Shown here in pieces: positions 36,589-47,673 of a stretch of 64,000 bases of DNA. The DNA comes from Agelaius tricolor (Eukaryota; Chordata; Aves; Passeriformes; Icteridae). The first letter of the stretch is position 1; every line of letters starts with the position of its first letter. Position numbers and translations under genes: made by a program. Location: positions 1,364,001 through 1,428,000 of the forward strand of contig JALJCS010000056.1 in assembly GCA_023055355.1 (NCBI GenBank), given 5' to 3'. The notes under the pieces were generated by a model, which had not been told where the DNA came from, did no database searches, and saw nothing but the letters and a program-made list of their open reading frames with translations.

Positions 36589-37115
36589 TGTAGCAGCCAC
36601 AGGGACTGCAAGGCCTCTCTGGCAGTCAGTTGCCTAAGATAAGAAATGTCTAGTCATGATGACTGGACCTAAGAAGCCCCTCATCCGCCTTCGGACCCTC
36701 GTTATCTCTCTGTAAGACCATAGGTCATATTCGCCTCAACCCTTACTATTGGACTGTTTCCCAAAACCCCTATACCCTATATAAACCCCTACTTCTGCGC
36801 TGTTCAGCAGAAGAGCTGTCACTGTCACCCTTCGCAGAAGCTGCCAATAAAGACACCTCTGTGGAACCTCATACAACCTTCTCCTCTCTCTCCCTGTGTC
36901 TGCCAAGGCACTTAGCAAGCAAAGAGCTGAAATCACTAAAGAGCTGAATTCACCAAAGAGCTGATCTCACTTAAGAGCTGAGCTGCTTGCTAAGATTGCC
37001 GGCGGCTGGGAGCGTACCTGAGGGACCTGGTCAGGTTGTGCTTAGTGGGACTTCGCTATTCAGACACCTATGGCAGCCGGGGTCGGACAGACCCCAAAAA
37101 CCCTCCGCCATAATA
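36589..37115 (+). repeat. P2 5' LTR
   Basis: Starts TGTAGCAGCC and ends CCATAATA. CCCTATATAAACCCC near 36774 is a clear TATA box and GCCAATAAAGACACC near 36845 the poly(A) signal. The U5 side carries a short repeat of AAAGAGCTGA at 36920-36985. Confidence 0.93.
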
Positions 37116-37117
37116 AA

Positions 37118-37450
37118 TTTGGCGCACCAAACTGCTTGCACCCTAGCACCGCAGAGAGTAGCGTTCTTCTTGAATCGTCACTGCCTCAGGTCCCTACAAC
37201 CTTCTGAAGATAAGTTCTCTGTTATAGAAGAAGTTATCTTAAGAGGCGTCCAACGACCCTCCATATCGACATCTGGGATGAGATGCTGAGGAGTCGGACA
37301 CGGCAGACCACCCACCAGCAGGTTTTGACCCACATTCAGCTGAAGAAGTGTAAGCTTTAAAACAGCCATTTTTGCACGCTTTTACCTTGGGTCCTTTTTT
37401 GGGATTTTTTTCTTTTTTTTCCTCTTTCTGCTGCTGGAGGGGAAAAGGGA
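37118..37450 (+). other. P2 leader with primer-binding-like TGGCGC
   Basis: TTTGGCGCACC begins three bases past the LTR; TGGCGC is the start of a tRNA-Lys-type site but the rest does not match, so the primer is uncertain. The leader runs to the gag ATG at 37451. Confidence 0.5.
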
Positions 37451-37846
37451 ATGGGATCAAAACATAGTAAATTAAAAGGATCCCAGAACGACAGAGACTT
37501 ACATCTACAAATCCTAGAAATCCTATCCACTAACAGCTTGTCTTTCTCTAAAGGCAATCTCTCAAAAACTAACTTGAAAAAATTTATAAAATGGATTCTT
37601 TCCCAGTTTCCAGATACTAACACACACATTATCGCCCTAGATTCTTTTTGGGACACAGTAGGGACAAGAATATATTCTCGCCAAACTAATGAAGATTTTT
37701 CTGTAACTCGGTTTTTACCTCTTTTTCATTCTATAACCAAATGGGTCGAAAAGACAAATATAAAGAGCTCAATTTCTTTGCAACCTTACCCTGCTGAGGG
37801 CATTCCGACCTTATCTCTCCCACCAGAGACTCTCTTCAAATGCTAA
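37451..37846 (+). pseudogene. gag: P2 gag, matrix region
   Basis: A 131-aa frame begins MGSKHSK, a Gly-2 myristoylation signal, and has the helical core FIKWILSQFPD near residue 46 that corresponds to RWLFSQFPD in P3. The TAA/TGA-rich stretch after residue 131 ends it early; the following text is readable in another frame, so a frameshift separates matrix from the proline-rich part. Matrix would target Gag to membrane. The start is the first ATG after the leader and fits the family. Confidence 0.85.
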
Positions 37847-39203
37847 TATTGCAGATAACATTCCTTCCCTCTCAGTCTCTGAATCCTATCCTCCGCTTTC
37901 CCTGGGTCCAAACGCTGTCTCTGGGGCCCCTCCACCCTCAGGCCCCTTTCCTGGGACGGGGAACACCGAGTTTGCACCGCGCCCACCCACCCCCTCTGCA
38001 CCCGCGGGGTCCGCAGGGCCTGCCGATCCTTCTGCTCTCCCCCCCGGACACGGCTAGAGCAGATTCCACTCCACCTATTGCGCAATACATGGCATGCTAT
38101 TTGCGCCCTTCCCCCGGGCTACCTTCGGGTGTAACTGCGCCGGTTCCTATCAGGTTTGCTCCCCCTCACTCCAACATCTCCGTGCAGCCCACCGCAACCC
38201 CCCCCCACCCCTGCTGCCATGCCTCTCACTCCCCCCTTGTGTCTCCCCATCCCTGCTACCATTCCTGCCGCAACAGGCAGTCTTCTCCCTGCCTGCCTCC
38301 GCCTCGTCGTGCCTGCTTTGGCAGCGGCAGCCCCTGCCAATCCCACGGCCTCCTCTCCCCCGCTTTTCCCTTGCCCGCATTCCCAGGCTTTGCAACCACC
38401 CACCCACCCTCAGTGTTCCCCGAACGGCACCTCCGAGACCCCCCACGGTGGCACCTCACTTCCCCATGCGCCTCAGTCCTGTGCCGGCTGTGCCACCCGT
38501 GGCACTGCCATTGCCTCTCCACTGCTGCCTCCCTCTAGCCAAGCTCTGCCATGTGCCTCCTCACACTCTCTTCAGTTCCCTACACCCCTGCAAACTCTCG
38601 CTCCAACATGCCCAAAATAGCATACTGCACCACCTGCTCACTCTCACTCCACCACTAAGGACAGTAGTGACCACGAGTCCGATTCTGATACAGAGGACAT
38701 TGATCCATGGGCTCTAATCAAAATGGAAGCGACCCGGGCATGGGGATTGGGAACTGGCTCAGAGAATTTCTGCCTTCCCAGTAATTTATATAAAGGGAAA
38801 AAGAGGTGGTGCCACCACTAAAACAATGTGGGAACCTAACACAAATAAATAACTTGTACAACTACGAAATATAGCCAAAGAACATGATAGAAGTTCACAT
38901 ATTTTTAGAAATTTCCTAGAAGCTATCTTCTTGGCACAGGTTTTAGTACCTCATGATGTTAAAAATATTGGCCACTGCCTTCTTTCCCCAGCAGAATATA
39001 TGCTGTGGGAAAAGCATTAGAAAAGATAATGAAAAACATTATCAGACACCTATGCTACAGATGCTGATAGGCTAGATTTTACAGTCAAACAGCTAGCTGG
39101 AGAAGGGGACTTACAGAAACCCTCTGACCAAGCTAACATCTTACCTAAGGCAGCACTACAAGACTTGGCTATTACAGCAAAAACATCCTTACTTCTTACC
39201 CCA
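37847..39203 (+). pseudogene. gag: P2 gag, proline-rich and capsid N-terminal part
   Basis: 37850-38640 is C-rich and encodes Pro/Ser/Ala-rich sequence in more than one frame with stops. From about 38860 capsid-like text appears (KEHDRSSHIFRNFLEAIFLAQ, then SPAEYMLWEK), comparable to the P3 capsid (RRLFSCLLNPTKFVMWEE). Several in-frame stops are present. The capsid is cut at 39209/39210 by an inserted element. Confidence 0.7.
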
Positions 39204-45278: not shown

Positions 45279-45889
45279 AGGACCCAGAAACACATCAAAT
45301 TTCTGGGCCTTTCCAGCTGATTACTTGAGGAAGAGGGCGTGTTCTACTACCATCTGGTCCGAGGTGGTACCCAGGAAAAAACATAAAGCCATACCTAGGC
45401 GCTGCAAACACTATTCCCAAAAACACTGACAATAATTCCCCTGAGTCAAACACAAGACCTGCTCAAAACCAGACCAGTTCTACCTGGAGACGAAGGTGTC
45501 ACTGAATGTCCACATTCAGAAGAAAAGACCGTCCCATCATGTGACAGCAGGCAAAACAGAAAGCTCAACAACATTCTGTCATATCAGTCAAGCCATAAGC
45601 ATGACACAGCCTGAACACAAATTGTTCTCTGAATTACATGTAATTACCCCTTTTTTACCCTAAGAACCCCTATTATTCCCCTTTCTCAACTCTTACCAAA
45701 AACCCCTAACCTTATACCCACTCCCCCATCTTTAGCTTATAAAAAAAAAAAAAAGGGGGGGGGGAAGCAAAGGAGGAAAGGAACAAAGGAACAAAGGAAC
45801 AAGGGAGAAAACCCTAACCCTCCCCTCCCATCATAAAGATAAAAAATTTTACTTATATTCCCTCTCAGAAGCCTCATTCCTGTCCAAAG
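45279..45889 (+). other. P2 pol-env junction
   Basis: Degraded end of integrase, then C-rich sequence and a simple A13G10-like run at 45740-45762 just upstream of env. No further ORF is supported. Confidence 0.55.
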
Positions 45890-47100
45890 ATGAAAATTAT
45901 CTCTGTTGGTTCTGTCCTCAATGCTGCCTGGATGTTCTTCACCGTACCACATGCCTTTGGCTGGATTAGCCCACAGCCCAGCCATAATGTTTGTATAACC
46001 TTAGCAAGGACATTAAAACAGGATAACATGTGCTTGTCCATGGGAAGCATTGATAACCCACTTTCCACATGTCTGGTAGGGATTCCCTTCATAGCCAATG
46101 ACTGGCCTGTCTATAATTCAGAACTCCTCCGATCCACAGGTAAGAGACCCAATGGGGTAGATACTTGGGACAAGTGGACAAAAATGTTGCCCAATGCTCT
46201 AGAGGAACCCCAAGAATTGGACCTGTTGGGGTCCTCCAAGACCACATACTGTGTCAAATTTTACTTTAGACATCCAAAGAATAATTGGCCAGAAACTGAC
46301 CAGACCAAAAACACATACCGAAAAGAGATATCACCCATTAACAAAGCCTGTAACTATCCCAATTGGTGTAATTACACGGCTCGTGTGATCTCTGTGTCCT
46401 CTCTCCACCCCAAAGTATTACCCAAGGGAACATTTCTCATTTGTGGTGACCAAGTTTGGGCTGGGATCCCCTCGCAGCTCCAGGGACATCCCTGTAGCCT
46501 TGGAAAACTTTCTACTCTCACTCCAAATATCACCTTGCTACATAATTGGAGAAAAAGAAAGTGAATTAAAATGCCACAAAAGATCCTACATGGAATTTGA
46601 TGAAAATTGTGATTCCAAATTATACTATTGGAATAAGCCAAAAAAAATTGCTGTCTTCCTATTCCTACCATGGGTAGCTGCAGCTAAAGCCCTTGGGGAA
46701 ATAAATCACCTAGGGTGCTGGCTCAGTAAGCAAGCCAATGCTACATCTGCTGCCCTGAGCGATCTTTTAAAGGAAGAAGAAACCACAAGACATGCATCAC
46801 TTCAAAATCAAGCAGCAATTGACTTCCTACTGCTTGCCCATGGACACAGCTGCCACGACTTCGAAGGGACGTGCTGCTTCAGTCTCTCTTCACGCTCAGA
46901 ATCCATTCATGCAAACATCCAGAAACTGAGGGAACTTGTGAAGGACTTAAAAGTAAAAAACAACCCAGACTGGGTCAATGACCTTTTCAGTCAATGAGGA
47001 TTAACAGGATGGGTTGCATCTTTGGTTAAGGGAATGTTGAGGATTTTCATTGTAATTGTCATTGCATTAGCTATGTTTTCATGCCTTTTCCATTGTTTTA
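45890..47100 (+). pseudogene. env: P2 env: surface and CX6CC transmembrane subunits, frameshifted
   Basis: The ATG at 45890 begins a hydrophobic signal peptide and a surface subunit open to 46564, with several NXS/T sites and LICGDQVWAGIPS near residue 183. The frame then changes near 46560. The transmembrane subunit, in the frame open from 46443 to 46997, has a hydrophobic fusion-peptide-like stretch (IAVFLFLPWVAAA), heptads, LQNQAAIDFLLL and the cysteine motif CHDFEGTCC (CX6CC). An in-frame TGA at 46996-46998 precedes the membrane anchor near 47035-47095. It would be an entry glycoprotein; here it is nonfunctional. It aligns throughout with P3 env. Confidence 0.87.
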
Positions 47101-47146
47101 AAAGATCTATTTGGAACGCCTTTTTACTAAATACAGAAAGTGGAGT

Positions 47147-47673
47147 TGTAACAGCCACAGGGACTGCAAGGCCTCCCTGGCGGTCAGTTGCCTAAGATAA
47201 GAAGTGTCTAGTCATGATGACTGGACCTAAGAAGCCCCTCATCCGCCTTCAGACCCTCGTTATCTCTCTGTAAGACCATAGGTCATATTCGCCTTAACCC
47301 TTACTATTGGACTGTTTCCCAAAACCCCTATACCCTATATAAACCCCTACTTCTGCGCTGTTCAGCAGAAGAGCTGTCACTGTCACCCTTCGCAGAAGCT
47401 GCCAATAAAGACACCTCTGTGGAACCTCATACAACCTTCTCCTCTCTCTCCCTGTGTCTGCCAAGGCACTTAGCAAGCAAAGAGCTGAAATCACTAAAGA
47501 GCTGAATTCACCAAAGAGCTGATCTCACTTAAGAGCTGAGCTGCTTGCTAAGATTGCCGGCGGCTGGGAGGGTACCTGAGGGACCTGGTCAGGTTGTGCT
47601 TAGTGGGACTTCGCTATTCAGACACCTACGGCAGCCGGAGTCAGACAGACCCCAAAAACCCTCCACCATAATA
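47147..47673 (+). repeat. P2 3' LTR
   Basis: 527 bp, same length as the 5' LTR, about 11 substitutions. Preceded by a purine-rich ACAGAAAGTGGAG. Followed by ATGTAG, the target duplication. Confidence 0.93.

What the first reader, a model, noticed from the sequence alone, without database searches (positions are those of the whole stretch)
36589..47673. Age paradox in P2: the inner element is far older by LTR divergence than its host
P2 LTRs differ by about 2.1% (11 of 527), but the LTRs of the element inserted in its gag (39210-41016, with a perfect AGATGA duplication) differ by about 10%. An inner insertion cannot predate its host at one locus. The simplest reading is that the element inserted long ago into an ancestral P2 copy, and the whole defective composite was later copied in trans by another virus's enzymes, which would reset only the outer LTRs. 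This would also explain why P2 coding regions are so damaged for a 2% provirus. Gene conversion of the P2 LTRs is the alternative.
Basis: partly seen in the sequence, partly recalled or inferred. Interest (0 to 1): 0.75.

Follow-up and report, generated by a model that had tools for sequence, protein, structure and literature searches.

The report
Nested provirus with clashing age clocks
A small retroelement sits inside an older bird provirus yet looks older by the usual repeat-divergence clock; the likeliest reason is that gene conversion distorted the clock at this locus, a known pitfall, though copying of the nested pair as a unit is not ruled out.

Summary
In detail: P2 LTRs differ at 11 of 527 sites (2.1%), the LTRs of the element in its gag at 29 of 292 (9.9%; Fisher 1.7e-6). 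The damage remark also holds: 8 in-frame stops in 4,830 aligned coding bases, 2.1 expected from the P2 LTRs (P=0.0015), though 6 of 8 lie in gag. The P2 body fits about 2.8% per copy: older than its LTRs say (P=0.015), perhaps younger than the inner LTRs say (P=0.05). Conversion and trans-copying both predict an old body. For conversion: all 11 P2 differences fall outside one 275-bp identical block (P=0.003), and the rest of the LTR agrees with the body. Against trans-copying: two sense AATAAA signals in the RNA's path; 3 of 3 gag relatives found lack the inner element. Best reading: ordinary nesting order, P2 LTRs partly homogenised; part of the gap stays open. In plants 25% of nested pairs are inverted like this (PMC7251063). 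The decisive test, other copies in the host genome, was unreachable: 17 genome-search requests did not complete.

The parts
36583..36588 (+). P2 5' target duplication ATGCAG
36589..37115 (+). P2 5' LTR, 527 bp
   Evidence: 11 differences to the 3' LTR
36738..37012 (+). 275-bp block identical in both P2 LTRs (partner 47296-47570); candidate gene-conversion tract
   Evidence: permutation P=0.003, P=0.008 with CpG columns weighted tenfold
37451..39208 (+). P2 gag, first part; broken, 4 in-frame stops in the capsid stretch 38769-39206, changes of frame before it by eye
   Evidence: no Pfam match for the first piece
39203..39208 (+). target duplication AGATGA of the inner element
39209..39504 (+). 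inner element 5' LTR (sense; AATAAA at 39391)
39505..40719 (+). inner element interior, about 1.2 kb, no retroviral gene recognised
   Evidence: ORF list read by eye; no family search was run on it
40720..41016 (+). inner element 3' LTR (sense; AATAAA at 40906)
41017..41022 (+). second AGATGA duplication
41017..41611 (+). P2 gag, end part with CCHC zinc knuckle; 2 in-frame stops in 41021-41119
   Evidence: PF00098
41614..42276 (+). P2 protease region, open
   Evidence: PF00077
42207..43470 (+). P2 pol, reverse transcriptase part; several changes of frame, open 42720-43409
43477..44005 (-). solo LTR inserted antisense in P2 pol, TSD ACTGAC, distant relative of the P2 LTR (69% over 164 columns)
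43992..45418 (+). P2 pol, RNase H and integrase; open to about 45272, then a change of frame and one stop (pol sequence proper resumes after 44005)
45887..47105 (+). P2 env (gp85-like surface part and transmembrane part), one change of frame, one stop
47147..47673 (+). P2 3' LTR
47674..47679 (+). P2 3' target duplication ATGTAG

Best explanation
Ordinary nesting at one locus: P2 integrated first, the small LTR element later jumped into its gag, and a solo LTR into its pol. Gene conversion between the two P2 LTRs then homogenised at least a 275-bp block, so P2 looks younger (2.1%) than it is (about 4-8% pairwise by the rest of the LTR and by its coding damage). What is left of the gap to the inner pair (9.9%) comes from further conversion, chance, or an inner pair that is somewhat inflated by conversion from another family copy or a fast local rate. 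Shown: the two divergences, the identical block, the excess of stops, the target duplications. Inferred: conversion as the cause of the block, and whatever closes the rest of the gap.
For: All 11 P2 LTR differences fall outside one 275-bp run (P=0.003; 0.008 with CpG columns weighted tenfold); the inner pair (P=0.92) and the two P3 LTR segments (0.39, 0.73) show no such run. The body is older than the whole P2 LTR implies: 8 stops vs 2.1 expected (P=0.0015); body equal to whole-LTR age rejected at P=0.015, body equal to the LTR outside the run fits (P=0.55). P2 departs from conserved RNase H/integrase columns more than 95 of 98 relatives (10 of 106). Precedent: 1042 of 4126 nested plant pairs have the inner LTRs more diverged, attributed to conversion (PMC7251063: abstract, passages and the Discussion read); non-allelic conversion among human Y LTRs (PMC4921805: abstract and passages).
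Against: Outside the run P2 LTRs are still less diverged than the inner ones (11 of 252 vs 29 of 292, Fisher 0.014), and one age for body, LTR outside the run and inner pair is rejected at P=0.025. Body as old as the inner pair is marginal (P=0.05; 0.01-0.04 in a cruder combination), pulled down by private missense changes (at most 11 vs 20-23 expected). The run was noticed before it was tested. Among the control pairs the inverted pair 27994-28391/34737-35128, with only 3 differences, also gave a low P (0.04). Stops are uneven: 6 of 8 in gag, 2 in the other 4,143 bases, which alone fit 1.2% per copy (0.1-4.2).
Confidence: 0.55

Rival explanations
1. One reading: the inner element entered an ancestral P2 copy long ago and the defective composite RNA was later packaged and copied by another virus, resetting only the outer LTRs. 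A variant: only gag with the inner element comes from the old copy, joined by template switching to younger pol, env and LTRs.
For: Explains the age order without conversion. The body is older than the LTRs (P=0.015). The variant would explain why 6 of 8 stops lie in the 687 gag bases around the inner element (P=1.8e-4) while the rest, 2 stops in 4,143 bases, fits the P2 LTR age.
Against: P2 LTR differences unevenly spread (P=0.003); two sense AATAAA signals in the path of the RNA; 296-bp direct repeats tend to be lost in reverse transcription (established knowledge, not tested); no hit carries the 5' junction (3 hits among 5 candidates) and the 3' junction frame found none (43 candidates). 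For the variant: private missense changes in gag are not raised (5-6 of 103 codons), and 6 gag stops exceed even what the inner age predicts (1.4, P=0.003).
Confidence: 0.17
2. Mainly the inner clock is wrong: P2 is about 2-4% pairwise and the inner LTR pair is inflated several-fold by conversion from another family copy or a fast local rate.
For: Private missense changes, at most 11 against 20-23 expected at the inner age (P 0.004-0.02); pol, pro and env hold 2 stops where 8.6 are expected at that age (P=0.009).
Against: Total stops 8 vs 10.0 expected at the inner age (P=0.34) and 2.1 at the P2 LTR age (P=0.0015); wider conserved-column sets gave 3.0-5.2% per copy with the median baseline; inner differences are evenly spread with no tract (P=0.92).
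Confidence: 0.18
3. Assembly effect: polishing or collapse homogenised the P2 LTRs or mixed inner LTR copies.
For: A run of about 26 G at 34705-34730 and dense repeats suggest a hard region.
Against: Target duplications and reading frames around both insertions are coherent.
Confidence: 0.07

Closest known systems
Nested LTR retrotransposons with inverted LTR ages (PMC7251063)
   Same: Inner LTR pair more diverged than the outer pair; an identical tract that suggests gene conversion
   Different: Plant Ty1/copia and Ty3/gypsy elements there, one bird provirus here; GENECONV was not run here, a permutation test of the longest identical run was
Avian, mostly passerine, ERVK-type (class II) endogenous retroviruses
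   Same: Highest pol identities 76-83% over 59-93% of the query, named hits among them Molothrus, Emberiza, Corvus, Rhodinocichla; RVP, RVT, thumb, RNase H, integrase, CCHC and gp85 matches; 6-bp target duplications
   Different: No hit above 83%; the listing also holds non-passerines such as Bucco and Calidris; LTR runs from TG to TA by the duplications, not TG to CA
Small non-autonomous LTR elements (TRIM-like; name recalled)
   Same: Short LTRs, 1.2-kb interior without a recognised gene, perfect duplication
   Different: Family not identified; nothing found with an LTR pattern in viral contigs or the 3' junction frame in the protein collection

Membership tests
ERVK-type (class II) endogenous retrovirus: P2 | pol with RT, RNase H and integrase nearest to ERVK-type Pol | tested here: met
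   (names as the sources gave them)
ERVK-type (class II) endogenous retrovirus: P2 | 6-bp target duplication | tested here: met
   ATGCAG/ATGTAG, 5 of 6
ERVK-type (class II) endogenous retrovirus: P2 | LTR with TG...CA ends | tested here: not met
   P2 LTR ends in TA by the duplications; so P2 is called ERVK-like by its pol only
Gene-converted LTR pair: P2 | tract of identity longer than chance between otherwise diverged LTRs | tested here: met
   275 bp, P=0.003; post hoc
Gene-converted LTR pair: P2 | converted LTRs share derived bases absent from the orthologous locus | not testable with these tools
   needs a sister species or the host genome; the genome search did not complete
Composite copied in trans | same inner element at the same site in copies at other loci | tested here: inconclusive
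   3 of 3 protein hits lack it; host genome unreachable
Composite copied in trans | body decay at least that of the inner LTRs and above that of the outer LTRs | tested here: inconclusive
   above outer: P=0.015; equal to inner: P=0.05
Non-autonomous LTR retroelement: inner element | LTR pair, target duplication, interior without gag-pol | tested here: met
   interior judged from the ORF list only

The most novel reading that the evidence does not exclude
P2 is a recombinant copy: a helper-driven round of reverse transcription joined an old, defective gag that already held the inner element (read through two internal sense LTRs) to younger pol, env and LTR sequence, so that the provirus carries an insertion older than its own integration. 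The crowding of stops in gag is what this predicts.
Probability: 0.12. Interest if true: 0.6.

Novelty: new member of a known kind. Interest (0 to 1): 0.3.

Why it matters
LTR divergence is the standard clock for endogenous retroviruses. A nested pair gives an absolute order, so this locus is an internal check that the clock fails here several-fold, in a bird, and shows how the spread of LTR differences and coding damage can tell which pair is off. If the trans-copy or recombinant reading were true, it would show that large nested composites can be packaged and re-integrated.

Tried and rejected
G-to-A hypermutation as the cause of P2 damage in pol: 6 of 25 departures at 250 conserved columns fit G>A alone, the rest are mixed; rejected for pol, not tested for gag. 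CpG decay as the cause of the inner excess: non-CpG columns differ as strongly. Dating P2 from outside through the nearly identical inverted LTR pair 27994-28391 / 34737-35128: given up, because that LTR seems to lie in the leader of the outer element (by eye) and its age relative to P2 is unknown. Differences at birth between the two inner LTRs: reverse transcription makes both from one template (established knowledge), so set aside. Searches that found no relatives: P2 RNase H/integrase in viral contigs (7 pattern matches, none confirmed), an inner-LTR pattern there, a P2-LTR pattern in genome contigs, the 3' junction frame in the protein collection (43 candidates). Paper searches: (listings); no paper on this locus was seen in those listings. 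PMC6523648 was opened with a term search that matched nothing.

A mistake found on re-reading: searches used only 4-5 stops. One search lists 13 stop positions inside aligned stretches; I had dropped 9 as lying beside changes of frame. One search showed that three of the nine, in the capsid stretch, are in the frame of all three gag relatives, and that the one just outside (41036) is too, so 8 stops count and 6 stay dropped (4 in pol before or after a change of frame, 2 near the end of integrase). With 8 stops the body is older than the P2 LTRs imply; with the earlier count I had concluded the opposite. The stop-based conclusions, and notebook entry 2, are superseded, and I raised the odds of trans-copying accordingly (from 0.10 to 0.17).

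Other limits: three of the eight stops lie within 15 bases; counted as one, 6 stops against 2.1 give P=0.02. About five changes of frame in pol and one in env (spans, my reading) were not turned into an age. In one search the pair 739-1119/3797-4173 has no differences, so its P means nothing. One search crashed and was rerun. One search included two non-LTR columns (13 differences there, 11 in the LTR). One search counted 10 of 251 outside the run; one search uses 11 of 252. The column tests used the 120 listed of 407 proteins: 98 or 109 for RNase H/integrase and 43 or 44 for RT by coverage, 13 close ones.
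Full report
Observation. The two LTR pairs were realigned. P2 (36589-37115 / 47147-47673) has 11 differences in 527 sites and no gap; its target duplications are ATGCAG and ATGTAG. The inner element (39209-41016, duplications AGATGA) has 29 differences in 292 sites and 3-4 gap events. The contrast is significant with all columns (P=1.7e-6) and with CpG columns dropped (P=4e-6). An insertion cannot predate its target at one locus, so a clock is wrong or the composite has moved.

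What the elements are. Open pieces of P2 match CCHC, protease, RT, RT thumb, RNase H, integrase and gp85 models; the first gag piece matched none and the transmembrane piece only a model below its curated cut-off. The RNase H/integrase piece is nearest to ERVK-type Pol proteins of birds, mostly passerines, at best 76-83% identical over 59-93% of the query, so the window is most likely from a passerine (inference). The inner element has about 296-bp LTRs and a 1.2-kb interior in which the ORF list shows no recognisable retroviral gene (by eye). A 529-bp solo LTR distantly related to the P2 LTR (69% over 164 columns) lies antisense in pol between perfect ACTGAC duplications.

Spread of the P2 LTR differences. 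They lie at offsets 4-148 and 424-518, with 275 identical bases between; the chance of so long a run is 0.003, or 0.008 with CpG columns weighted tenfold. The inner pair (0.92), P1 (0.84, one difference) and the P3 segments (0.39, 0.73) show nothing like it; an inverted pair with three differences gave 0.04. This is what a conversion tract between the LTRs would leave. Outside the run the divergence is 11 of 252, 4.4% (CI 2.2-7.7), still below the inner pair (Fisher 0.014). The run was noticed before it was tested, so the P value is optimistic.

Body clock. If P2 is as old as the inner LTRs imply, or if the composite was a dead locus since the inner insertion, its genes should have decayed by about 5% per copy; if it is as young as its LTRs say, by about 1%. 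In 4,830 coding bases set in the frame of relatives there are 8 stops: 2.1 expected at 1.05% (P=0.0015), 10.0 at 4.97% (P=0.34); estimate 4.0% (1.7-7.9). Private missense changes say less: 5 of 98 conserved RNase H/integrase columns and 5-6 of 103 gag codons beside the inner element, together at most 11 against 7 expected at 1.05% and 20-23 at 4.97%. Wider column sets, which include differences shared within the subfamily, gave 3.0-5.2% with the median baseline, and P2 departs from 95%-conserved RNase H/integrase columns more than 95 of 98 relatives. Together the body fits 2.8% per copy. Body equal to the whole P2 LTR is rejected (P=0.015); equal to the P2 LTR outside the run fits (P=0.55); equal to the inner LTRs is marginal (P=0.05); one age for all, with the run left out, P=0.025, with it kept, 1e-5. 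An earlier stop count of 4-5 was too low and had pointed the other way; see Tried and rejected.

Where the damage lies. Six of the eight stops fall in the 687 bases of gag on either side of the inner element (P=1.8e-4); the other 4,143 bases hold two, which fits 1.2% per copy (0.1-4.2) and is low for the inner age (P=0.009). Three of the gag stops lie within 15 bases. Frame changes, by contrast, are mostly in pol. The crowding in gag is unexplained. A recombinant provirus with an old gag would predict it, but private missense changes in gag are not raised.

Insertion site in relatives. A search with the gag piece and the first residues of the inner LTR found 3 proteins among 5 candidates. All three run on through the site as gag, the nearest 91% identical over 58 residues, so they lack the inner element there. 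The 3' junction frame found nothing. This agrees with a private insertion in P2 but does not exclude other composite copies.

Transcription. The inner LTRs are in sense and hold AATAAA at 39391 and 40906. A full-length P2 RNA would have to pass both, and 296-bp direct repeats tend to be lost in reverse transcription (established knowledge, not tested). This lowers, without excluding, any reading in which the composite was copied.

Synthesis. The P2 LTR outside the run (2.2% per copy) and the body (2.8%) agree and lie between the whole-LTR value (1.05%) and the inner value (5.0%). So the P2 LTRs read too young, and the block gives the most direct reason, gene conversion. The rest of the gap to the inner pair is of borderline significance and may be further conversion, chance or inflation of the inner pair; conversion by other family copies is known for LTRs (PMC4921805, abstract and passages). 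In plants 1042 of 4126 nested pairs show the same inversion (PMC7251063). The locus is a well-shown example of a known failure of the LTR clock, with the copied-composite reading left open. The host genome, which would decide, could not be searched in 17 tries.

Noticed in passing
38769-39206 and 41021-41119: Six of eight in-frame stops of P2 crowd in gag around the inner element, three of them within 15 bases, while pol, pro and env hold two; unexplained.
   Followed up: partly
36453-36582 and 47680-47900: P2 appears to have inserted into the start of gag of an older, third endogenous retrovirus that carries several stop codons close together; by eye only.
   Followed up: partly
27994-28391 (-) and 34737-35128 (+): Two nearly identical LTRs (3 substitutions in 392 sites, 3 indel events) in inverted orientation 6.3 kb apart; the second is preceded by a run of about 26 G that may mark a doubtful assembly join.
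   Followed up: partly
51295-59893 (-): A related provirus (57% identity to P2 in RNase H/integrase); one of its LTR copies has an extra 160-bp stretch (51621-51780, from the alignments).
   Followed up: no
43477-44005: The solo LTR in P2 pol is a distant relative of the P2 LTR (69% over 164 columns) and, like it, runs from TG to TA in its own sense by the duplications.
   Followed up: partly
62937-63409 and 63528-64000: Inverted repeat, 86% identical over 481 columns, at the window's end.
   Followed up: no
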